Origin: Escherichia ruysiae
Lineage (GTDB): Bacteria; Pseudomonadota; Gammaproteobacteria; Enterobacterales; Enterobacteriaceae
Assembly (NCBI RefSeq): GCF_031323975.1
Contig: NZ_JAVIWS010000001.1
Coordinates: 4,464,001-4,528,000, forward strand
Reading direction: 5' to 3'
DNA length: 64,000 nucleotides
In this document: piece after piece, positions 14,242 through 32,678 of the stretch
How positions within the stretch are numbered: the first letter of the stretch is position 1
How the letters are laid out: every line of letters begins with the position of its first letter
The notes under the pieces: model-generated
Databases searched by the model: none
The model's input: the letters and a program-made list of their open reading frames with translations, nothing else
What the model was told of the DNA's origin: nothing
Position numbers and translations under genes: made by a program

Positions 14242-15171
14242 ATGACGCAATTTGCATTTGTGTTCCCTGGACAGGGCTCTCAAACCGTTGGAATGCTGGC
14301 TGATATGGCGGCGAGCTATCCCATTGTCGAAGAAACGTTTGCTGAAGCTTCTGCGGCGCTGGGCTACGACTTGTGGGCACTGACCCAGCAGGGACCTGCC
14401 GAAGAATTGAATAAAACCTGGCAAACCCAACCAGCACTGTTGACGGCATCTGTTGCGCTGTACCGTGTGTGGCAGCAGCAGGGCGGTAAAGCACCGGCGA
14501 TGATGGCCGGTCACAGCCTGGGTGAATACTCCGCGCTGGTTTGCGCTGGTGTGATTGATTTTGCTGATGCGGTGCGTCTGGTTGAGATGCGTGGCAAGTT
14601 CATGCAGGAAGCTGTACCGGAAGGGACAGGTGCAATGGCGGCAATTATCGGTCTTGATGATGCGTCTATTGCTAAAGCGTGTGAAGAAGCTGCAGAAGGT
14701 CAGGTCGTTTCTCCGGTAAACTTTAACTCTCCGGGGCAGGTCGTTATTGCCGGTCATAAAGAAGCGGTTGAGCGTGCAGGTGCTGCCTGTAAAGCTGCGG
14801 GCGCAAAACGTGCGCTGCCGTTGCCTGTAAGCGTACCGTCACACTGTGCGCTGATGAAACCGGCTGCCGATAAATTGGCTGTTGAATTGGCGAAAATCAC
14901 CTTCAATACCCCAACCGTTCCGGTTGTGAATAACGTTGATGTGAAATGCGAAACTAATGGCGATGCTATCCGTGATGCGCTGGTACGTCAGCTGTATAAT
15001 CCGGTTCAGTGGACGAAATCTGTTGAATACATGGCAGCGCAAGGCGTTGAACATCTTTATGAAGTCGGCCCGGGCAAAGTGCTTACTGGCCTGACGAAAC
15101 GCATTGTCGACACCCTGACCGCCTCGGCGCTGAACGAACCTTCAGCGATGGCAGCGGCGCTCGAGCTTTAA
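14242..15171 (+). CDS. fabD: Malonyl-CoA-ACP transacylase FabD
   Basis: FabD (309 residues) moves malonyl from CoA to ACP. The active-site serine is in AGHSLGEYSAL (Ser about 92), and the partner His is in SVPSHCALM (about 201). The N-terminal FVFPGQGSQTVGM is the family oxyanion-hole motif. It is expressed with fabH and fabG, with gaps of 15 and 12 bases and good ribosome-binding sites (AAGGA, GAGGAAA). Confidence 0.98.
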   Translation: MTQFAFVFPGQGSQTVGMLADMAASYPIVEETFAEASAALGYDLWALTQQGPAEELNKTWQTQPALLTASVALYRVWQQQGGKAPAMMAGHSLGEYSALVCAGVIDFADAVRLVEMRGKFMQEAVPEGTGAMAAIIGLDDASIAKACEEAAEGQVVSPVNFNSPGQVVIAGHKEAVERAGAACKAAGAKRALPLPVSVPSHCALMKPAADKLAVELAKITFNTPTVPVVNNVDVKCETNGDAIRDALVRQLYNPVQWTKSVEYMAAQGVEHLYEVGPGKVLTGLTKRIVDTLTASALNEPSAMAAALEL

Positions 15172-16376: not shown

Positions 16377-17695
<1,319 letters not shown>

Positions 17696-17712
17696 TCCTT
17701 AAGTAGATAGTT

Positions 17713-17745
17713 AAAAAGCGAAACACAATGTGTTTCGCTTTTTTT
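17713..17745. terminator. Symmetrical (bidirectional) terminator between fabF and the fimbrial operon
   Basis: AAAAAGCGAAACACA (17713-17727) pairs with TGTTTCGCTTTTTTT (17731-17745). The stem is flanked by A on one side and T on the other, so it can end transcription in both directions. It lies 18 bases after the fabF stop and 9 bases beyond the last fimbrial gene. Confidence 0.85.
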
Positions 17746-17753
17746 ACGTCAAC

Positions 17754-18281
17754 TTATTGATAAGTAAACGTAAACTGCACAACAGTATGGAATTCACCTG
17801 CCGTGACCGTACCGGTAGGTGTATACATCCGTGCAGCAAGTGGGAAGGTCGCTTTTCTACTGGCCTGGTCGACGTTTACCGTCATTTTACCATTCGGGCT
17901 TATTTCCGTTATGTGGTCATCCGTCATAATCTGCAGCGCCATCCCGGTGGCATCCCCAAGTGTATTCGCGAACTTCGTCTGGTCAACAAGATCGCTTTCC
18001 CCGGTAAACAACGCTGTAACACTGCTTGTTGATGCAGGGCAAGAAGATAAATTCAGACTAAAGTTCTGCCACTCACTGGTATGGCCGACCGTGTCGTAAT
18101 TAACGGCTCGCGCCTGCTCAAAGCTGACAGTTTGAGCCTTCGTTTGTGTATCTATGACGCATGCTGATGCTACCACCGTGCCATTAATGTTAATATCAGC
18201 CGCTTGGGCAGAGTGAAATGCACATAAAGGCCAGAGAGTTACCAGTAAGGTAAAAATTGTGGCACTTCGTTGAGTAATCAT
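17754..18281 (-). CDS. Minor fimbrial subunit (FimF/FimG-like), distal gene
   Basis: 175 residues: a signal peptide ending AQA (about 28), then a single pilin domain. ADININGTVVASACVID has the donor-strand segment and first cysteine; the second cysteine is in LNLSSCPAS. The C-terminal QFTFTYQ has the penultimate tyrosine used for chaperone recognition. It is probably a tip-fibre or terminating subunit. It is clearly a paralogue of the preceding minor pilin gene, sharing ININGxVxAS and CPxSTSS. It is the last gene of the operon, just before the shared terminator. I do not recognise a named homologue. Confidence 0.85.
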   Translation of the reverse strand: MITQRSATIFTLLVTLWPLCAFHSAQAADININGTVVASACVIDTQTKAQTVSFEQARAVNYDTVGHTSEWQNFSLNLSSCPASTSSVTALFTGESDLVDQTKFANTLGDATGMALQIMTDDHITEISPNGKMTVNVDQASRKATFPLAARMYTPTGTVTAGEFHTVVQFTFTYQ

Positions 18282-18295
18282 GGCGCTAGCACCTG

Positions 18296-18820
18296 TTACT
18301 GATAAGTAAATGTTGCCTGAACCAGGCCGGTGATTGAACCAGGCATCACATTTCCTTTCGATACAGCCCGCGTACGAAGCTGAAGGTCATAGGCGTGAGA
18401 ACCAGGAATAGGGGTATTATTGATTGATGAACCATTACCCAACGTTGTAGAACCATCCTGCGTAGTGAGCTCAAGAGAGAGATTAGTTGCTGAACCAGTA
18501 TTGGCGTAGTTTGTGGCAATATCACCGTCCGGCGTACCAGAGAAAGCGACGCTAAAGCTGGAGGTTGAGAGTGGGCAATTGGTTAATTGCAAAGAGAAGT
18601 CTTTCCAGGTGGATGCGCTTCCCGCAGCCGAAAGAGAATCCGCCTGAATATTATCGCCAATATTTACATTCACGGCACTATTCCCACCATTAACGACGCA
18701 CGGAGATGCCAGTACTAATCCATTAATATTGATCTCTACCGCATTAACGGAGGAAGCCCCCAGAAGACTGCTGGCGATAACAAATATTATAAACTTACGC
18801 TTCCATATTATATTCATCAT
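18296..18820 (-). CDS. Minor fimbrial subunit (FimF/FimG-like)
   Basis: 174 residues: signal peptide to about residue 27 (SSVNA), then a pilin domain starting VEININGLVLASPCVV. The second cysteine is in LQLTNCPLST, and the end is VQATFTYQ. The length, disulfide spacing and C-terminal beta strand fit a chaperone-usher minor pilin. It lies 6 bases after the adhesin gene and 14 bases before its paralogue. It probably links the adhesin to the shaft; whether it or the distal paralogue contacts the adhesin cannot be told from sequence. Confidence 0.85.
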   Translation of the reverse strand: MMNIIWKRKFIIFVIASSLLGASSVNAVEININGLVLASPCVVNGGNSAVNVNIGDNIQADSLSAAGSASTWKDFSLQLTNCPLSTSSFSVAFSGTPDGDIATNYANTGSATNLSLELTTQDGSTTLGNGSSINNTPIPGSHAYDLQLRTRAVSKGNVMPGSITGLVQATFTYQ

Positions 18821-18826
18821 TTTTCC

Positions 18827-19822
18827 TTAATTATATTGTACAGTAAATTGCAATGCGGATTTTACCTGGCCGGTGGTTATGTTATTAACATCGTCAATGT
18901 AATAAGCTACTTTATATTCGGGTATTGTATAATCACCTGAGCCGATATAATTCAATGCAAAGTTATTGTTAAACTGATCGAATCCGCTTCCATCGGGGTT
19001 TTGAAATTGCACATATACGCCTTGCGCATAACCGGTTCCGGTCTCACCGTTCATCACGCCATCCACCGAGCCGTGAGTTCCGTATAAGGCGCTAAATTTG
19101 TAAGAGATACCCGTAATTGCGCCCGGACAATTTGTTAATGTTATTGTAGGTATTGGCGTAGCCAGTTGTGCCCCACTAACTGCATTACCGCCATAAAGTG
19201 TTGTAAGGTTCACTTCTTTTGGAGCATTTATTGTGCATGGCGTCATGGTAGGCTGCGAAGAAACTCCTGAGCGTGCAAGAAATGATTTATCCGAATAAGT
19301 GCTTCCCGGCGGGTTGTGATAATTTAATGTGACGTCAGGAACAGCGACAAGAGGTCCTGGCGGTATCTGCTCTGTAAGACGAACTAATTCATACTTGATG
19401 TGTATGTAACCACTCTTGCTTAAACCTTCCGGGAAAGTCAGCGTGTGAGGTGCTGCTTTCGCCAAATTTGGTGTGGTATCTGTTGGGGTTGAAAAATTGA
19501 GTTGATATGCAATGCCAATACCAGGATTGCTTGTTTGATATATGGTTGCTCCGTCGCCCGTTGTTCCGACCACCGTCCCATTTACTGTAAGATCGGCATA
19601 TGCACTGCCAGAACCTCCGGACGCGATATTGATCCAATAAAATTTATTCCAGTCATCAAACCAGGTTGTTCCACCTACACTCGTTGGTATGCTCCACGTT
19701 GAAAAATCATGAGGGTAGGTGACTACCTGTGCAGTATCAGTCTGAAATTGCGATGCTGTTGTTGTTAACGGCAGTGATGCAATGCCTGAGATAAGAAAGA
19801 TGATTACCCTTTGTTTATTCAT
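18827..19822 (-). CDS. Two-domain fimbrial tip adhesin (putative)
   Basis: 331 residues from the ATG at 19822. A start at 19867 would add 15 residues, overlap the usher gene and spoil the signal peptide. A signal peptide ends near residue 24 (TTTAS). Residues about 25-205 form a domain rich in aromatic residues, Gly and Thr, without cysteine. Residues about 206-331 are a pilin domain with Cys in TPCTIN and LTNCPG and the end ALQFTVQYN. This lectin-plus-pilin plan fits FimH- or LpfD-type adhesins. Its position straight after the usher resembles lpf operons. The receptor is unknown. Confidence 0.8.
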   Translation of the reverse strand: MNKQRVIIFLISGIASLPLTTTASQFQTDTAQVVTYPHDFSTWSIPTSVGGTTWFDDWNKFYWINIASGGSGSAYADLTVNGTVVGTTGDGATIYQTSNPGIGIAYQLNFSTPTDTTPNLAKAAPHTLTFPEGLSKSGYIHIKYELVRLTEQIPPGPLVAVPDVTLNYHNPPGSTYSDKSFLARSGVSSQPTMTPCTINAPKEVNLTTLYGGNAVSGAQLATPIPTITLTNCPGAITGISYKFSALYGTHGSVDGVMNGETGTGYAQGVYVQFQNPDGSGFDQFNNNFALNYIGSGDYTIPEYKVAYYIDDVNNITTGQVKSALQFTVQYN

Positions 19823-19850
19823 AGCATTGTTTCCTCTTTTCTGGCTCAAT

Positions 19851-22424
19851 TTATTCGCACCTTCCATGGCTCTCTAATACACTATTTGTCGATTGCTGTT
19901 GAGTGACGTTGAATTCAACCCGGCAATTTTGGTGCGCATTGTTTCCCCATTTAACGGCGAGTACACCACTGTCCGGCATACCTGTCATATAGACTTGTCC
20001 GTTATCGCCGACGATAAAGCTGTTTGCATTTTCGCTGTTAAGCAGGGTGACAATGGCTCCGAAAGGTATTGCTTCTCCCGATGGTTTATCCAGCATCATT
20101 AATACACGATTACCTACGCGAATATTAAAGTTTGCTCGCGCGATAGCGCCACGTGTCGGCGTTACTGTACGTGAGGAGAGCTCAACATCTGCATTTTCAG
20201 GTAATGCTTCAGTGTTAAGTGAAATAGTGTTTTCACGATAGGGGCTGATATAAGGAACGATCGTGTAGCCACGAAAGTCGGTGTTTACACCGGTCTGGTT
20301 ACTGATATTTACACCGCTGGCACCTGGCGCTTCAACCAGTGCAGTGGTTTCTCCCAGGGACTGGCTTAGTGTGATGCCATTGGCATGAACAACAATACCC
20401 CCATCAATACCATAGTTCACCCGGTGCTGGTTCTGGTCATAACTGTACGCAGCATTGACGCGACCATAGGTTCCCTGATAGTCCAGGCTGGCATAACCGC
20501 CATTACCTACACCGTGATCCGTTTCACTTTCCTGAATATTCCAGTTGAGGTTCTGATCGTCAAGCGCAGAACCATTCAGGCCTACAGAATGACTGGTATC
20601 GCCGTGTTTACTGGTATTCAGACTGTAGCTCGCCCAACTGTTATTCAACCAGCGATTTAATGGAATATTGATATTAAATGAGAAAATCTGATCGCTATTG
20701 TAGTACTTATTACGCGTTGTATTATTGTCGCGGTAATTACTATTGTCGTTGGTATTACGGTTATAACTGTAATTCAGGCTGTAAGTCATGCCGCTCCAGC
20801 TATTACTGTAGCCAACGCCAACAGAACGCATTTGTCGATCGCTGTTCCAATAATCTTCGCTAATGGCATTAAGCGATACTGAACCAGCATTCTGTCCAAG
20901 ATTTTGGTTAAGCAGGAACTCCGCTCGGTTACGCCGCCGTTCTGGCATGTTTTGATTATTTTCACGCCAGGTGTCGAGCGTTTCTTGCAGTGAATAATAA
21001 CCCGATGTGGAATAGCGATAGCCCGCGATAGAAACATTAGTCCCGGTGGCGAGAATGTTTTTACTATAGCGTACCCGTACTGACTGACCGCTGGTTTTCT
21101 CTTGTTCCTGCTGTTGGGACCAGGCCTGGGCGGTATCGATAGATAAGGCGCCCATTTCACCCAAGTTTTTACCCATACCGAAAATTAATGATTGATAATG
21201 TTGCGAGAATTGCCCACCGCCATATAAGGTAAATCCAACGGGCAGGCCATATATGGCAGTTGCTTGCGTGAAATACTCTTTATCAACACGGCTGTCATAA
21301 GAGCGGTATTTTCCGCTGGTCACGCTATATTTCAGGCGGCCTTCACGTTGCAACACGGGGAGCGATGCAAAGGGAACAACCTGGTGCTGTTCACTGCCAT
21401 CCGCTTCTTTGACCGTTACGTCCAGATCGCCGCTACTTCCGGTCGGATACATATCCGTGATTTCAAATGCGCCTGGCGAAACATAAGTTTGATAAATGGT
21501 ATAACCATTTTGTTTAACAATAACCTGCGCATTGGTTCTGGCGATTCCGCGTACAACAGGTGCATAACCACGCATACTGTCAGGTAACATATCGTCATCA
21601 GAAGCTAGCTGCACACCGCGAAACGGAACGCTATCAAACATATCTGACGGAGAAGAGCTTTCTCCAAGCGTGAGCTGGCTCTTGAGCGAAATGATATTTC
21701 GCTGGGCATAGGTATACAGAGAATCCCAGTTGTTCTGGGTATCACTACCAAAAGTGTTACGACTCCAGGTACTGTAATTACGTAAGCGCCATGGCCCGAT
21801 ATTTAATCCAGGAAGGAGATTAAGATAATAGCTGTCAGAATCAGATGAATTGCTATCACGCGATTTTGTATTAGCACCGGTGAAATTGTAGTTCAGCAGT
21901 AACGCATTTATTCCTTCATCCAGATTTTCAGGCGCCACGTATCCACGCGGTTTCGCTTCGACTGCCGCTTGAGGTATTTCCACCATTAGCTGCTGACGGT
22001 TAAAAATGAGTTTTGCCGAGGCCATCGGAATTGCCGCGAGATTGGCGCAGCCTTCATTATTGATCAGTTGCGGGAATAACTCGGTACGAACACCAAATTG
22101 CTTTAATTTTTCCACCGATATGCATGGTTGCAATATGTTCTGACCCTGAAGGTCTTTCTGCATACTGAAAGTAATATCGTGTGTACCCAGCGACATTTTG
22201 TTTAGGTAAACGTCAACACGATAGGTTCCAGGAATCTGACCGACACCCTCTTCAAAAGCGCTAAGATCTGAAATACCTGAGCCAGGGCCGTCGATTCCCA
22301 GTAATGCGGGGTTAAAATATTCGCGTGCATATGCCGATGAGGCGAGAGACAGGGCGCATTGCAGAGCAACGAAACAGGCAATTTTGTTCCGTATCATTTT
22401 CTTTTTATTGATTCTTGAACTCAT
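19851..22424 (-). CDS. Fimbrial outer-membrane usher (FimD/LpfC family)
   Basis: 857 residues. A signal peptide ends near AYA (about 33), and the mature N-terminal domain begins REYFNPALLG, which binds chaperone-subunit complexes. The 24-strand barrel and plug region includes the family signature VPFRGVQLASDDDMLPDSM and GYAPVVRGIA (about 268-296). The C-terminal domain (from about 760) has KPSGEAIPFGA and GMPDSGVLAVKWG, with paired cysteines near the end. Length and order are normal and intact, so the secretion pore should be functional. It lies 29 bases after the chaperone gene. Confidence 0.95.
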   Translation of the reverse strand: MSSRINKKKMIRNKIACFVALQCALSLASSAYAREYFNPALLGIDGPGSGISDLSAFEEGVGQIPGTYRVDVYLNKMSLGTHDITFSMQKDLQGQNILQPCISVEKLKQFGVRTELFPQLINNEGCANLAAIPMASAKLIFNRQQLMVEIPQAAVEAKPRGYVAPENLDEGINALLLNYNFTGANTKSRDSNSSDSDSYYLNLLPGLNIGPWRLRNYSTWSRNTFGSDTQNNWDSLYTYAQRNIISLKSQLTLGESSSPSDMFDSVPFRGVQLASDDDMLPDSMRGYAPVVRGIARTNAQVIVKQNGYTIYQTYVSPGAFEITDMYPTGSSGDLDVTVKEADGSEQHQVVPFASLPVLQREGRLKYSVTSGKYRSYDSRVDKEYFTQATAIYGLPVGFTLYGGGQFSQHYQSLIFGMGKNLGEMGALSIDTAQAWSQQQEQEKTSGQSVRVRYSKNILATGTNVSIAGYRYSTSGYYSLQETLDTWRENNQNMPERRRNRAEFLLNQNLGQNAGSVSLNAISEDYWNSDRQMRSVGVGYSNSWSGMTYSLNYSYNRNTNDNSNYRDNNTTRNKYYNSDQIFSFNINIPLNRWLNNSWASYSLNTSKHGDTSHSVGLNGSALDDQNLNWNIQESETDHGVGNGGYASLDYQGTYGRVNAAYSYDQNQHRVNYGIDGGIVVHANGITLSQSLGETTALVEAPGASGVNISNQTGVNTDFRGYTIVPYISPYRENTISLNTEALPENADVELSSRTVTPTRGAIARANFNIRVGNRVLMMLDKPSGEAIPFGAIVTLLNSENANSFIVGDNGQVYMTGMPDSGVLAVKWGNNAHQNCRVEFNVTQQQSTNSVLESHGRCE

Positions 22425-22453
22425 TACACATCCTTATGCAGTTAAATGACGTC

Positions 22454-23131
22454 TTACAAAGAAGCGTTGTGTACGTCGCCTGCTGCACCGTAATCACTGA
22501 TGATTGTCCAGCTTACATTTCCTGTTGTGTTGGCTGGAATTTGAAATGTCGCACTACTCATAGGAGCAACATATGTGGCATCAGGTAATGCTTTTCCGCC
22601 AATCTTGACCTGACTGAAGTTCATATAGTAAGCAGTTGGGTTGGTGACAGTGATTTGCTGTCCGCTACGTCGCCAGGTCAAATTTTTCACGACTTGTTCT
22701 GGTAATGTGGACGAAATCTCATGTGGTCGATAAATCAATTTAATTCGCGTTTTAATGGCAATTTGCAAGGTGTTGACATTTTCCTGCTTTTCAGTTGCAG
22801 GTATCGTTTTAATATTCATCCAGTACATCGTTTCGCGATCTGTCGGCAGATTGCCGCCAGCGCGAATAATGCGCAACGCATTTTCTTCAGTGGCGCCCAG
22901 GCGGAACAGAGGGGGGGTAATAATAAAAGGGGCTTTGGCGTTGGTTTGCGGATCTCCATCGACCCATGATTGAATAAGGTAGGAGGATTTATCCGGATTT
23001 TTCAGGTGCAGAGACGTTTCTTTTTTATCGCCGTTATAAATAACTCGTGTTCCTCCAACAATGACACCCGCCTGTGCAACAGAGTTGGATAATAACAATG
23101 CAGTAGCAAGAAAATAAGTCGATAATTTCAT
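22454..23131 (-). CDS. Periplasmic fimbrial chaperone (FGS subfamily)
   Basis: 225 residues: signal peptide ending AQA (about 21), then two immunoglobulin-like domains. The conserved arginine is in GTRVIYNG and the conserved lysine in TRIKLIYRP (about 130); these anchor the C-terminus of bound pilins. PLFRLGATEENALRI is the family signature. The short loop before the second segment suggests the FGS class used for rod-like pili. It lies between the major pilin and the usher, separated from the pilin by a 74-base gap containing a strong hairpin. Confidence 0.94.
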   Translation of the reverse strand: MKLSTYFLATALLLSNSVAQAGVIVGGTRVIYNGDKKETSLHLKNPDKSSYLIQSWVDGDPQTNAKAPFIITPPLFRLGATEENALRIIRAGGNLPTDRETMYWMNIKTIPATEKQENVNTLQIAIKTRIKLIYRPHEISSTLPEQVVKNLTWRRSGQQITVTNPTAYYMNFSQVKIGGKALPDATYVAPMSSATFQIPANTTGNVSWTIISDYGAAGDVHNASL

Positions 23132-23147
23132 CTCAAAAACCTTTAAA

Positions 23148-23176
23148 AGGTAAAACCGAGTAACTCGGTTTTACCT
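23148..23176 (-). promoter_or_regulatory. Intercistronic hairpin between major pilin and chaperone genes
   Basis: A perfect 13-base inverted repeat (AGGTAAAACCGAG and its complement) has a three-base loop, and in the sense of the operon it is followed by TTTTAAAGG. Such hairpins in pilus operons stabilise the pilin mRNA end or attenuate transcription so that the shaft subunit outnumbers chaperone and usher. Confidence 0.7.
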
Positions 23177-23205
23177 GACGTAATTATATTAAAATCAGGC
23201 GTATC

Positions 23206-23739
23206 TTAGTTATACGCTAACGTAAAGTTCACAGTACCATTTGCACTACCAACCGCTATGGTATCTTCTGTAGCGATATAACGTGCAAAGAAGTCCAGGT
23301 TAGTGTCGCCAGTGCTATTGAGAGCCGTGCTATCGGATTCAGTACCGAGAGGTAGCACGCTACCGGAAGAATTCATGAGCTGAATTGCAACACCTTTTGC
23401 TACACCGGTTGTACCGTAATCAGTAACTTGTAAAGCATCCTGGTTGATCTGATCCGGAGTACCATCGTATTTAACAGCAACATTTTTGAGCTCATTCGGG
23501 CAATTTTTTAATACCAGTGTAAATTTGGTATTTGCAGCAGTAGTCCCAGCCGTAGCGTTAAAAGCTGTTTTAGCAATTGTGCCTAATTTCACTGTCATTG
23601 GAGATGACAGCGTACTGTTAACTTCACAGCCTGATTCAATGATATCTCCAATAAAATTTATTTTACCATCATCTGCAGAGGCGACAGAGCTAAGACCAGC
23701 GGTTGTTACTAAAACCAGAGCGGCTAGTTTGAATTTCAT
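23206..23739 (-). CDS. Major fimbrial subunit (type-1-like pilin)
   Basis: 177 residues: signal peptide to about residue 22 (SSVASA), then a pilin starting DDGKINFIGDIIESGCEV. The paired cysteines are in GCEV (about 38) and LKNCPNEL (about 79), and the C-terminus is VNFTLAYN with the penultimate tyrosine. Good AAGGA ribosome-binding site. As the first gene, followed by the hairpin, it is the expected shaft subunit. Its length and spacing resemble LpfA and FimA-family pilins, but I cannot name its exact type. Confidence 0.92.
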   Translation of the reverse strand: MKFKLAALVLVTTAGLSSVASADDGKINFIGDIIESGCEVNSTLSSPMTVKLGTIAKTAFNATAGTTAANTKFTLVLKNCPNELKNVAVKYDGTPDQINQDALQVTDYGTTGVAKGVAIQLMNSSGSVLPLGTESDSTALNSTGDTNLDFFARYIATEDTIAVGSANGTVNFTLAYN

Positions 23740-23832
23740 TTACATTATCCTTGAGATTGCAGCAAATATGCTTACTTTGACAGTACTAAGGCACTGCCAT
23801 CACTCCAGTGAATTTTAAATTCCTCAGGAAAA

Positions 23833-23861
23833 AATATAATATTAAAGCACGAAACGTTAAA
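23833..23861 (-). promoter_or_regulatory. Possible promoter for the fimbrial operon
   Basis: On the minus strand, TTTAAC (23861-23856), 17 bases and TATATT (23838-23833), about 95 bases before the pilin ATG. The -10 is good and the -35 poor, so an activator may be needed. The rest of 23740-24095 is AT-rich; I saw no phase-variation inverted repeats. Confidence 0.35.
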
Positions 23862-24040
23862 CACCTTATTTTTACTTAAATATGTTTTTAGGCATGCTTA
23901 ATTGATTCGTATTGCGTATGATTGGTGGTGAAGTTTGTGAGGATTGCTGGGGGAGTTGTACAATCATATTGATGATTTAAATGTGTGCTGTCGTATAAAT
24001 ATCTTTGGGCAATCAAAAAGAGGCCAGTGAACAGATAAAT

Positions 24041-24070
24041 TTGAACATAGAAGCTAAAATAATTTATTGT
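24041..24070 (+). promoter_or_regulatory. Possible promoter for pabC-mltG-tmk-holB
   Basis: TTGAAC (24041-24046), 18 bases, TATTGT (24065-24070), giving a leader of about 20 bases to the pabC ATG. It is only a moderate match. Some promoter is expected here because the fab operon transcript ends at 17713-17745. A second weak candidate is TTGATG at 23969 with TATAAA at 23994. Confidence 0.35.
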
Positions 24071-24095
24071 ATTTCTTTGTTTATTGGGGAAGTGA

Positions 24096-24905
24096 ATGTT
24101 TTTAATTAATGGAAAATGTAACAATGAGTTACCGGCTTGTGACAGGAGCATACAGTTCGGTGATGGATGTTTTACAACGGCTGTGATAAACTGTGGGCAG
24201 GTAGTACTCTTGACCGCGCATTTAACACGTTTACGTGAAGCCTGCTCCCGTTTAAGCATTCCTTATTCCGACTGGTCTATACTGGAAGATGAGATGCAAA
24301 GTCTGGCACGACAAGCTGAGCGTGGCGTTTTAAAAGTTATTATCACTCGCGGCAGTGGTGGTCGAGGATATAGCATCGCCCACTGCGAATCGCCTGGGCG
24401 CATTTTATCTGTCTCCCCCTTTCCTGAACATTACACCCGCTGGCGGCGGGAAGGTATTACTCTGGCGCTAAGTCCAGTACGCCTTGGACGTAATCCTTAT
24501 CTCGCAGGAATTAAACATCTTAATCGGCTTGAGCAAGTACTGATCCGCTCTCATCTTGAGCAGACAAACGCCGATGAGGCGCTGGTTCTTGACAGCGATG
24601 GGTGGGTTACGGAATGCTGTGCGGCTAATTTGTTCTGGCGCAAGGGCAACGTAGTTTATACGCCGCGTCTGGATCAGGCTGGTGTCAACGGCATTATGCG
24701 ACAATTCTGCATCGGTTTACTGGCACAATCCTCTTATCAGCTTGTCGAAGTACAAGCCTCGCTGGAGGAGGTGATGCAGGCAGATGAGATGGTAGTCTGT
24801 AATGCGTTGATGCCAGTGATTCCCGTGCGTGCCTGTGGCGAAGCCTCCTTTTCGTCAACAACGCTATATGAATATTTAGCCCCACTTTGTGAGCACCCGA
24901 ATTAG
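24096..24905 (+). CDS. pabC: Aminodeoxychorismate lyase PabC
   Basis: PabC (269 residues) releases pyruvate from 4-amino-4-deoxychorismate to give p-aminobenzoate for folate. It is a fold-type IV PLP enzyme with the catalytic lysine in [12 protein letters not shown] (about 140) and the PLP-binding run [16 protein letters not shown]. The length matches K-12. Residues 1 to about 118 differ strongly from the K-12 protein I remember, whereas from [13 protein letters not shown] onward it is nearly identical, so the gene looks mosaic. Ribosome-binding site GGGGAAG; mltG follows after two bases. Confidence 0.96.
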
Positions 24906-30155: not shown

Positions 30156-32345
30156 TCAGAACTGATACGTGCCGGTAATACTAAAATTACGTGGTGCGCC
30201 GTAGACGACAGAACCTTCCACGTTAGTGTCATAGGTTTTATCGAACAGATTATTGACGTTACCCTGCAACGAGAAGTTTTTTGTCACCTGGTAGCGGGTG
30301 AACAGATCCACCAGCGCGTAGCTACCTTGCTCGACGCGGAAGGTGCCATACGGTGTCACGGTGTCGGTATACACGCGATTTTGCCAGTTAACACCACCGC
30401 CGACCGTCAACTCTGGCATGACAGGCAACCGATAGCTGGTAAACATTTTAACCGTGGTACGCGGCAGATTCGGGTTAACGGCATTCCCTTCGTTATCTTC
30501 CGCCAGATAGCGCGTTGCGCCAAACGTCAGTTGCCAGTTGTCGGTAATTGCGCCGTTAAGTTCAAATTCCACGCCTTTACTTACTGTCCCATCCACCGCT
30601 TTATAGGCGGTTTCGCCGTTACTGCCGGGGATAGGCATTCCGGTGGACTGGGCGACATTATCCTGCTCAATACGGAAGATGGCTAACGTGGTGGTCAGAC
30701 GGCTATTCATCCAGTCTGATTTCAGACCCAGTTCGTAGTTGTTACCGGTGATCGGCGCCAGATATTTACCCGAACTGTCACGATCATTTTGTGGCTGGAA
30801 AATAGAGGTATAGCTGGCGTAGGTCGACCAGTTGTCATTGATGTCAAACACCAGACCAGCATAAGGCGTGGTGTGGTTTTTCTCCATGCTGTAAGTCAGT
30901 GTATCAACCCGCCAGTTGGTATAACGTGCGCCGAGGATCAGATGCAGCGGATCGGCGAGGGTGACGCGGGTGGCGGCATACAACGATTTCATATGTGTGG
31001 TATCGTCCTGTGCCAGGCTTTGCGGTGCCCAGTTGGTCTGCGGGAAGTTACCGTTGAAGTTGTAGAAACTGCCAATTTCATTGGGGAAAACGTTGGCCCA
31101 GGAGCTGAAATAGCGGTTGTTTTGTTTACTGTAGCTACCGCCGAGCATCAGATTGTGCTGGCGACCAAACACTTCATAACTACCGTCGGCAAACAGATCC
31201 AGCGCGTCAACTTTACGTTTGCCACTGTTCCAGCCAGTGCCGCCCACATAATCAAATCCGGGGCCATAGCTGCCATATGGTCCCACTAACGTTCCATCTG
31301 CTTTATTTACGTAGGCGTCGACATACATCATTTTGCTGTCAAATTCGACTTCGGAATGGGTGGCATTCAGCGTCGCCTGCCAGGTATCGGCAAATCGTTG
31401 CTTCAGTGACAGAAAGACTTTGTTGATCTCTTTGTCGTTATACGCCCAGTCAGGCGCGGTGCTGCGGGCGCGATCGTAACTGTTGCTGCTGCCATCGGTA
31501 TTCCAGCGTGGCAGGCCACCCCAGGTTGGGCTATTAACATCAATACGTTGATATTCATAACCGGCAGAAAGCGTGGTCAGCTCGCCCAAATCAGCATCCA
31601 CAATGCCGGAGAAGAAAGTCTTTTCGCTGTTGTAGCGATCCAGCCATAAATCGTTGTTCTGATAGCCGCCGACAATTCGCGCGCGGACTTTACCATCTTC
31701 CGTGAGCGGACTTTGTAAATCCGCCACATACCGTTCTTTGTTCCAGCTTCCGTATTCCGCCGAGACATCGCCTTTAAATTCACGGCTGGTGGCATGTTTG
31801 CGAACCATATTAATCGCTGCAGAAGGATTGCCAGTACCGGTCATTAGCCCGGTCGCGCCACGCACCACTTCTACACGCTCGAACAACGCCATATCAGTGA
31901 GTGCATCGCCCAGATTCCAGCGTGATTCAAAATAGGTGGGAATACCATCGACCATATAGTTATCGATCTGGAATCCACGCGAATAATAGAGGGTACGGTC
32001 GGAGTCAGCCTGGCTTTTGCTAATCCCGAGGGTATTTTCCATCACTTCGCCCAGCGTTTGCAGTTGCTGATCTTCCATTCGCTGCTGGCTGACAATAGTG
32101 ACCGACTGTGGAATATCACGTTGGGTCATCTGCATTTTAGTACCTACAGAGGTAGACGTTACGCTGTAATCATTTTCGTCATCAACTGGAGCATTGGTTG
32201 CTCCCTCAACAATCACCGTTTCTTCGGCGGTTGGCACGGCCAGAGTGGAGGAAGGAAATAAGGCCAGAGCAATGCAGGCTGCGAGCAGCGACGGCGTGGC
32301 TGCGGCTTGATGCTGATTATCCCTGTTAAATTGTGTCGAAAGCAT
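30156..32345 (-). CDS. fhuE: TonB-dependent ferric-coprogen/rhodotorulate receptor FhuE
   Basis: FhuE (729 residues) is the outer-membrane receptor for coprogen and related hydroxamate siderophores. A signal peptide ends near residue 36 (TLAVPTA). The TonB box lies in EETVIVEG, followed by the plug (SVTIVSQQRMEDQQLQTLGEV to about 190) and the 22-strand barrel, ending in ...FSITGTYQF with terminal Phe. It is intact at the K-12 length. Energy comes from TonB-ExbBD and uptake continues through FhuBCD, all encoded elsewhere. Confidence 0.97.
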   Translation of the reverse strand: MLSTQFNRDNQHQAAATPSLLAACIALALFPSSTLAVPTAEETVIVEGATNAPVDDENDYSVTSTSVGTKMQMTQRDIPQSVTIVSQQRMEDQQLQTLGEVMENTLGISKSQADSDRTLYYSRGFQIDNYMVDGIPTYFESRWNLGDALTDMALFERVEVVRGATGLMTGTGNPSAAINMVRKHATSREFKGDVSAEYGSWNKERYVADLQSPLTEDGKVRARIVGGYQNNDLWLDRYNSEKTFFSGIVDADLGELTTLSAGYEYQRIDVNSPTWGGLPRWNTDGSSNSYDRARSTAPDWAYNDKEINKVFLSLKQRFADTWQATLNATHSEVEFDSKMMYVDAYVNKADGTLVGPYGSYGPGFDYVGGTGWNSGKRKVDALDLFADGSYEVFGRQHNLMLGGSYSKQNNRYFSSWANVFPNEIGSFYNFNGNFPQTNWAPQSLAQDDTTHMKSLYAATRVTLADPLHLILGARYTNWRVDTLTYSMEKNHTTPYAGLVFDINDNWSTYASYTSIFQPQNDRDSSGKYLAPITGNNYELGLKSDWMNSRLTTTLAIFRIEQDNVAQSTGMPIPGSNGETAYKAVDGTVSKGVEFELNGAITDNWQLTFGATRYLAEDNEGNAVNPNLPRTTVKMFTSYRLPVMPELTVGGGVNWQNRVYTDTVTPYGTFRVEQGSYALVDLFTRYQVTKNFSLQGNVNNLFDKTYDTNVEGSVVYGAPRNFSITGTYQF

Positions 32346-32438
32346 CTGAAATCTCTTGATTTATGTTGTAGTCAGGCTCATTCCAGAGGAAGGTGATGAG
32401 CGTTTATATTTAGCGCGCTAATAATTCTGCATGGTAAT

Positions 32439-32457
32439 GCAAATGAGAAATATACGC
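32439..32457 (-). promoter_or_regulatory. Possible Fur box upstream of fhuE
   Basis: The 19 bases matched 11 of 19 positions of the GATAATGATAATCATTATC consensus by eye, about 95 bases before the fhuE start. Fur control of fhuE is established, but this exact site is only a candidate. The remaining 32346-32678 gap also holds the hinT promoter (candidate -10 TATACT at 32614-32619). Confidence 0.4.
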
Positions 32458-32678
32458 ATTCATATTTAACATGTAAACCAAAGAGAAAGTGTGTTTTCGG
32501 TTCATTCATAGGCATAAAGGGGAATAATGGCGATGTATGCGGCAGTAAAACGGTTTTTTGCTTAATAAATCGTGGGTTAAGGTTGAAAGAGCGGGTTTAA
32601 CTCGACCATACTCTATACTCGCAGTGTGGCGCGGCGTAGCATGGCGCAACGCATGGCTATTTAAAAAAGGAAAATGTC

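What the first reader, a model, noticed from the sequence alone, without database searches (positions are those of the whole stretch)
17754..23739. Complete chaperone-usher fimbrial operon inserted between fabF and pabC
Six intact genes (major pilin, chaperone, usher, two-domain adhesin, two minor pilins) lie on the minus strand where K-12 has fabF directly followed by pabC. No integrase, tRNA, IS or target-site repeat flanks it, so it did not arrive as a typical mobile island. The gene order (pilin-chaperone-usher-adhesin-minor pilins) resembles lpf operons, but I recognise neither the proteins nor this chromosomal site as a named fimbrial type. Every gene has an intact signal peptide, disulfide pair and C-terminal strand, so it looks functional.
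Basis: partly seen in the sequence, partly recalled or inferred. Interest (0 to 1): 0.72.

Follow-up and report, generated by a model that had tools for sequence, protein, structure and literature searches.

The report
Fimbrial operon swapped in by recombination
A complete, unnamed set of genes for making adhesive surface hairs sits between two housekeeping genes of an Escherichia species, and sequence comparisons suggest that it arrived by ordinary DNA recombination that also replaced the first part of the neighbouring gene.

Summary
Six intact minus-strand genes (17754-23739) encode a chaperone-usher fimbria: major pilin, chaperone, usher, two-domain adhesin, two minor pilins. They lie between fabF and pabC, where K-12 has 119 bp and 5370 of 5426 E. 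coli genomes have a near-contiguous junction. A same-species genome is empty here with 99% identical flanks.

The foreign block runs beyond the operon, into the last 97 nt of fabF at most and the first 357 nt of pabC, where it stops abruptly. In 7 occupied genomes pabC is 56-61% identical to a related empty genome over nt 1-330 and 78-100% from nt 406. The step is sharp in the window and strong in three others; it is weaker in two and inconclusive in Citrobacter braakii. The operon thus appears to move by homologous recombination in its flanking genes, leaving a chimeric pabC.

The fimbria is an unnamed member of a known kind: no named-family cut-off is met and its usher forms its own clade. 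Receptor and expression were not tested.

The parts
17599..24452 (.). Whole exchanged block (outermost differences from the empty same-species genome G060): fabF tail, operon, intergenic region, pabC head
17599..17695 (+). fabF 3' end: 11 differences from G060 after 1145 identical nt; the crossover lies before 17656
17713..17745 (.). Terminator hairpin shared by the converging fabF and last minor pilin gene
   Evidence: z -5.98; coordinates counted on the sequence
17754..18281 (-). Minor pilin 2
18296..18820 (-). Minor pilin 1 (FimG-like, no Pfam hit)
18827..19822 (-). Two-domain tip adhesin, 331 aa; receptor domain without strong Pfam match
19851..22424 (-). Outer-membrane usher
22454..23131 (-). 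Periplasmic chaperone
23148..23176 (-). Stem-loop between pilin and chaperone genes, covarying across 8 related operons
23206..23739 (-). Major pilin
23740..24095 (.). Divergent intergenic region (32.6% GC) that must hold the start signals of pilin and pabC; no GATC
24096..24905 (+). Chimeric pabC: nt 1-357 (24096-24452) foreign, nt 358-810 identical to G060

Best explanation
It is a chaperone-usher fimbrial operon, probably working, of a type for which I found no name. Shown by sequence: six intact genes, a covarying stem-loop after the pilin gene, purifying selection, the same type at the same site in 7 genomes, and sharp mosaic boundaries in fabF and pabC against an empty same-species genome. 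Inferred from knowledge of the family: the chaperone folds subunits in the periplasm, the usher assembles them, the two-domain adhesin sits at the tip and binds an unknown receptor through its N-terminal domain, and the stem-loop favours the major pilin over the later genes. Inferred from the mosaic: the operon enters chromosomes without an integrase of its own. Donor DNA carrying fabF, operon and pabC recombines with the resident chromosome, one crossover in the 3' part of fabF and one in the middle of pabC, and leaves a chimeric pabC.
For: Empty same-species genome with 99.0% identical flanks on both sides. fabF identical for 1145 nt, then 11 differences in the last 97; pabC diverged to nt 357, then 453 identical nt. 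In 7 occupied genomes pabC is 56-61% identical to a related empty genome over nt 1-330 and 78-100% from nt 406; 45 pairs of empty Escherichia give 81-99% and 88-99%. A drop at the fabF 3' end in 4 of 7 pairs. C-terminal part of PabC follows the host: Escherichia one clade 99/95, and one clade of the 7 occupied is rejected, p-AU 1e-59. Operon dS between the two occupied Escherichia is 1.5 to saturated, against 0.13-0.29 for fabF, tmk and mltG, with pN well below pS. No tRNA, plasmid match or end repeat seen. Recombination at flanking core genes without mobile elements is an established model (PMC5635113, passages).
Against: The first part of pabC evolves faster in general: distant empty pairs also give 67 against 78, 75 against 81, and E. 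fergusonii (name recalled from its chromosome length) 62-68 against 77-79. So the step is weaker evidence in G339 (57/85) and G329 (61/86) and inconclusive in C. braakii (56/78), whose partners are distant. Partners were chosen after seeing trees. The fabF step is not seen in 3 of 7 pairs. Holding the Escherichia sequences together for the first part of PabC is not rejected, p-AU 0.295. One related operon lies elsewhere (G217), so other routes of movement exist. In G339 the chaperone gene is in two pieces. No fibre, receptor or transcript was tested.
Confidence: 0.82

Rival explanations
1. The operon is ancestral at this site and was lost in most lineages; empty genomes are the derived ones, having received an empty allele by recombination.
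For: Occupied genomes lie in at least four genus groups plus C. braakii, all at one site. The first parts of the 7 occupied PabC form one side of a branch in three trees.
Against: 10 of 12 Escherichia genomes are empty, and their pabC has normal divergence along its whole length, as expected of a resident allele. Operon dS between the two occupied Escherichia is saturated while flanking genes have 0.13-0.29, which speaks against plain vertical descent. Branch support for the occupied group is weak: 79, 90/66, 50/46.
Confidence: 0.13
2. It is a diverged member of an already named type such as Lpf, Sti or Elf, not a type of its own.
For: Models of such types are among the nearest named families, and the six-gene order equals elfADCG-ycbUV.
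Against: All scores lie below the curated cut-offs: usher 874.6 bits against 995 for the best model, 854.7 against 1271 for LpfC, 741.1 against 975 for FimD. In the usher tree the type is a clade of 8 with support 100, apart from FimD, SfmD and ElfC. The tree holds no named Salmonella ushers, so this is not fully tested.
Confidence: 0.12
3. The operon was brought in by an integrative element or plasmid whose own genes were later lost.
For: G217 carries a related operon at another chromosomal place, so some non-allelic movement has happened.
Against: No tRNA, no plasmid match at megablast sensitivity, no end repeat among the families shown, and the block ends inside two conserved genes with homology to the recipient.
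Confidence: 0.05

Closest known systems
Elf (Ycb) fimbriae of E. coli K-12, elfADCG-ycbUV
   Same: Same order: pilin, chaperone, usher, adhesin-like, two minor pilins; ushers in the same wider part of the tree
   Different: Other chromosomal site, a second chaperone gene ycbF follows, usher outside the clade of 8
Long polar fimbriae (lpf)
   Same: Similar gene order (recalled) and usher model LpfC matched over its whole length (854.7 bits)
   Different: Far below the LpfC cut-off of 1271 bits
Type 1 fimbriae (fim)
   Same: Pilin, chaperone, usher, two-domain adhesin; minor pilins best match FimG
   Different: Usher 741.1 bits against a cut-off of 975; other gene order; no invertible element or recombinase gene seen at the operon
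[quoted passage not shown]
   Same: No mobile element; recombination signal in the flanking core genes
   Different: Here the breakpoints can be read directly, in genomes of several genera, and leave a chimeric housekeeping gene

Membership tests
Chaperone-usher fimbriae | Usher, PapD-type chaperone and pilin subunits in one cluster | tested here: met
   Pfam PF00577, PF00345/PF02753, PF00419 above gathering scores
Chaperone-usher fimbriae | Fibre on the cell surface built by these genes | not testable with these tools
   Needs microscopy
Two-domain tip adhesin | Receptor domain followed by a pilin domain | tested here: inconclusive
   Pilin domain matches FimG (E 5e-4); receptor domain seen only in low-confidence models (mean pLDDT 55.6 and 63.1) whose best matches are adhesins
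Named types with an NCBIfam equivalog model (Lpf, Fim, Bcf, Sef, Std and others) | Score above the curated cut-off | tested here: not met
   None of the six proteins reaches a cut-off
The 38 Escherichia types of PMC3559732 | Usher clade and locus position of a listed type | tested here: inconclusive
   fabF and pabC occur 0 times in its main text; the figures with positions are not held; usher apart from 6 K-12 types in my tree
Gamma-1 usher clade | Usher grouping with the gamma-1 reference set | tested here: inconclusive
   Next to FimD, SfmD and ElfC; the clade letter is recalled and no full reference set was used
Type 1 fimbrial phase switch | Invertible promoter element with recombinase genes | tested here: not met
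   None of the 25 inverted repeats shown (of 33) flanks the promoter region; no recombinase among the ORFs of 80 aa or more at the operon, judged by eye
Integrase-free hotspot exchanged by flanking recombination | Variable content, no mobile element, recombination signal in flanking core genes | tested here: met

The most novel reading that the evidence does not exclude
fabF tail + fimbrial operon + pabC head is an old allele in its own right that circulates between genera of Enterobacteriaceae against an equally old empty allele. Each entry uses the conserved middle of pabC as crossover site, so every carrier has a chimeric PabC, and the adhesin's receptor domain, the most variable part, is kept diverse by selection.
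Probability: 0.25. Interest if true: 0.6.

Novelty: new member of a known kind. Interest (0 to 1): 0.42.

Why it matters
The fimbria is one more type in a very large family. More useful is the clear picture of how such operons can move without mobile elements: breakpoints can be read in two housekeeping genes, and the passenger leaves a chimeric folate-synthesis gene (pabC) as a scar. A step in pabC identity is a simple marker for surveying how often fimbriae move this way. The adhesin's receptor domain has no strong Pfam match and no credible solved relative by sequence.

Tried and rejected
Mobile island: no tRNA, plasmid match or end repeat seen. Presence in E. coli: 0 of 5426 genomes have a place covering 80% of the operon query at megablast sensitivity, and 5370 of 5426 hold the fabF-pabC junction with gaps of at most about 900 bp (3 of the 60 rows listed have an IS200-type element there). 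Phase switch: no GATC in 23740-24095 and no flanking inverted repeat among the 25 shown of 33. Promoters there: 2 matches, 2.5 in shuffles. Conserved promoter: the pilin-pabC regions of 6 operons do not align convincingly. Congruence of usher and PabC trees: only partial. Adhesin structure: both models are of low confidence, so the fold matches (CupB6, FimH, MrkD, Abp, F17G) support no more than 'tip adhesin'. Species name: not settled; 93% to E. coli over 11.6 kb in the 8 rows listed, where 4 records with a best place of 99% or more were not listed and not followed. Literature: ten searches; I saw no paper on this operon at this site in the listings. Papers seen: PMC3559732 passages and two sections; passages only of PMC9238391, PMC3373541, PMC5635113 and PMC8896058.

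Count notes: the trees used 7 occupied and 34 empty genomes and left out G001 and G002, which were used. The 20 empty genomes were picked by me from the list, so they give no frequency. Empty partners were picked as near relatives after seeing the trees. In one search EcpC gave no hit and was dropped, and YehB and YfcU were fetched but not used. The stem-loop segments were cut out after seeing their folds, and one of the five measures does not exceed the shuffles (216 of 500).
Full report
OBSERVATION. The six ORFs are intact at the stated places. Pfam places the usher (PF00577, E 5e-198, with PapC_N and PapC_C), the chaperone (PapD_N and PapD_C) and two pilins (PF00419). The minor pilin at 18296-18820 has no Pfam hit but matches FimG-type models below their cut-off, and the adhesin's C-terminal half is a sub-threshold pilin match. 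K-12 MG1655 has fabF and pabC 119 bp apart. The operon has 45.0% GC against 50.7% for the window, and the 356 bp between pilin and pabC have 32.6%. The window lies in a 4.6 Mb genome that is about 93% identical to E. coli over 11.6 kb, so an Escherichia other than E. coli is likely; the species was not settled.

ANATOMY. On the minus strand the order is major pilin, stem-loop, chaperone, usher, adhesin, minor pilin 1, minor pilin 2. The last gene and fabF converge on a strong terminator hairpin (17713-17745; z -5.98). A stem-loop after the pilin gene (23148-23176) recurs in the 8 related operons compared. Seven of its 11 pairs have changes on both sides, 95.4% of cells are paired, and 0 of 500 shuffles reach the covariation score; one of five measures (further pair types) does not exceed shuffles, and the segments were chosen after folding. 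That such stem-loops favour the major subunit is recalled from other fimbriae; my search for a paper found none. The adhesin probably starts at 19822. Its receptor domain has no strong Pfam match (MrkD-like, E 0.005 at best, in 2 of 8 members) and no credible match among solved structures by sequence. Low-confidence models resemble adhesins such as CupB6, FimH, MrkD, Abp and F17G. Between the eight members the receptor domain is 41% identical on average, the adhesin's pilin domain 59% and the usher 70%.

WHERE ELSE. In the genus, 2 of 12 genomes are occupied at this site: this one and G004. Of 5426 E. coli genomes, 5370 hold the near-contiguous junction and 0 have a place covering 80% of the operon query at megablast sensitivity. 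Outside the genus the same genes lie between fabF and pabC in Citrobacter braakii (L013), G235 and G080, G329 and G339. G119 (genus code of G235) and G213 and G293 (genus code of G080) are empty, as are 20 further genomes that I picked, with gaps of 79-172 nt. A profile of the adhesin finds it in 8 of 392 genomes of the family at E 1e-40: 5 at fabF-pabC (own, G080, G235, G329, G339) and 3 elsewhere (G217, G288, G365). G217 has the closely related operon between genes that I recognise from recall as gsk and ybaL.

HOW IT GOT THERE. G060, listed as the same species, is empty, with flanks 99.0% identical on both sides. fabF is identical for 1145 nt and then has 11 differences in its last 97 nt, the first at 17599 and the next at 17656; pabC is diverged up to nt 357 and identical for the remaining 453 nt. 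In 7 occupied genomes, each paired with a related empty genome, pabC is 56-61% identical over nt 1-330 and 78-100% from nt 406 on (window 59/100, G004 61/90, G235 57/94, G080 58/92, G339 57/85, G329 61/86, C. braakii 56/78). Forty-five pairs among 10 empty Escherichia give 81-99% and 88-99%, and both occupied Escherichia give 56-62% and 89-100% against these 10. At the fabF end, 4 of 7 pairs (window, G004, G235, G080) drop to 78-85% in the last 54 nt, below every earlier block; the other 3 do not, and 4 empty pairs give 96-100% there. FabF ends in KR then V or I in 5 of the 6 occupied genomes read (window, others; G339 was not in that listing), and in KKI in 7 of 8 empty ones. The second part of PabC follows the host: Escherichia is one clade (99/95), and holding the 7 occupied together is rejected (p-AU 1e-59).

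WHAT SPEAKS AGAINST A STRONGER CLAIM. The first part of pabC evolves faster in general: the distant empty pairs give 67 against 78, 75 against 81 and 67 against 78, and G008 (E. fergusonii, recalled from its chromosome length) gives 62-68 against 77-79. The step is therefore sharp only in the window, strong in G004, G235 and G080, weaker in G339 and G329, and inconclusive in C. braakii. For the first part of PabC the 7 occupied sequences form one side of a branch in three trees, but with weak support (79; 90/66; 50/46), and forcing the Escherichia sequences together is not rejected (p-AU 0.295). The usher tree agrees with it on window + G004 but not on the other pairs. An old occupied allele shared between genera is thus possible but not shown. 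The mosaic in the window does not depend on these trees.

FUNCTION. Between the two occupied Escherichia the operon genes have dS of 1.5 to saturated, against 0.13-0.29 for fabF, tmk and mltG, while pN stays well below pS in all six genes. That speaks against plain vertical descent from their common ancestor and for purifying selection. In G339 the chaperone gene is in two pieces, so not every copy need work. Fibre, receptor and expression were not tested. The pilin-pabC region must also hold the start signals of pabC, which is cut off from fabF by a terminator and an opposed operon; I found no clear promoter and no sign of a phase switch.

COMPARISON WITH THE KNOWN. No NCBIfam equivalog cut-off is met by any of the six proteins; the usher's best model scores 874.6 bits against a cut-off of 995. 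The usher forms a clade of 8 with SH-aLRT support 100: the seven fabF-pabC operons plus G217. The gene order equals elfADCG-ycbUV. The survey of 38 Escherichia types does not contain the words fabF or pabC in its main text (PMC3559732; passages and two sections); its figures are not held. Nor do two Salmonella surveys (PMC9238391 and PMC3373541; passages). Movement by recombination in flanking core genes is an established model (PMC5635113; passages).

VERDICT. A real, complete, probably working fimbrial operon; a new member of a known kind at a recurrent site. The instructive part is its mode of entry and the chimeric pabC that it leaves behind.

Noticed in passing
window 30156-32345 (minus strand): A TonB-dependent-receptor-like ORF of 729 aa (fhuE by recalled K-12 position) is missing from 5 of the 11 other Escherichia stretches aligned: L090, L091, L095, L096 and L099 skip about 30330-32470, while the other six run through it.
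   Followed up: no
L157 (G339) 14429-15105: The chaperone gene of the related operon in G339 is split over two frames, so that copy may be decaying.
   Followed up: no
L159 / L119 (G217): A close relative of the operon sits at another chromosomal place, between genes that I recall as gsk and ybaL.
   Followed up: partly
G000 whole genome: The window's genome has 10 usher matches in all.
   Followed up: partly
fabF-pabC interval of some E. coli genomes: 3 of the 60 listed E. coli rows have an IS200-type transposase gene in this interval (H39, H75, H92).
   Followed up: no
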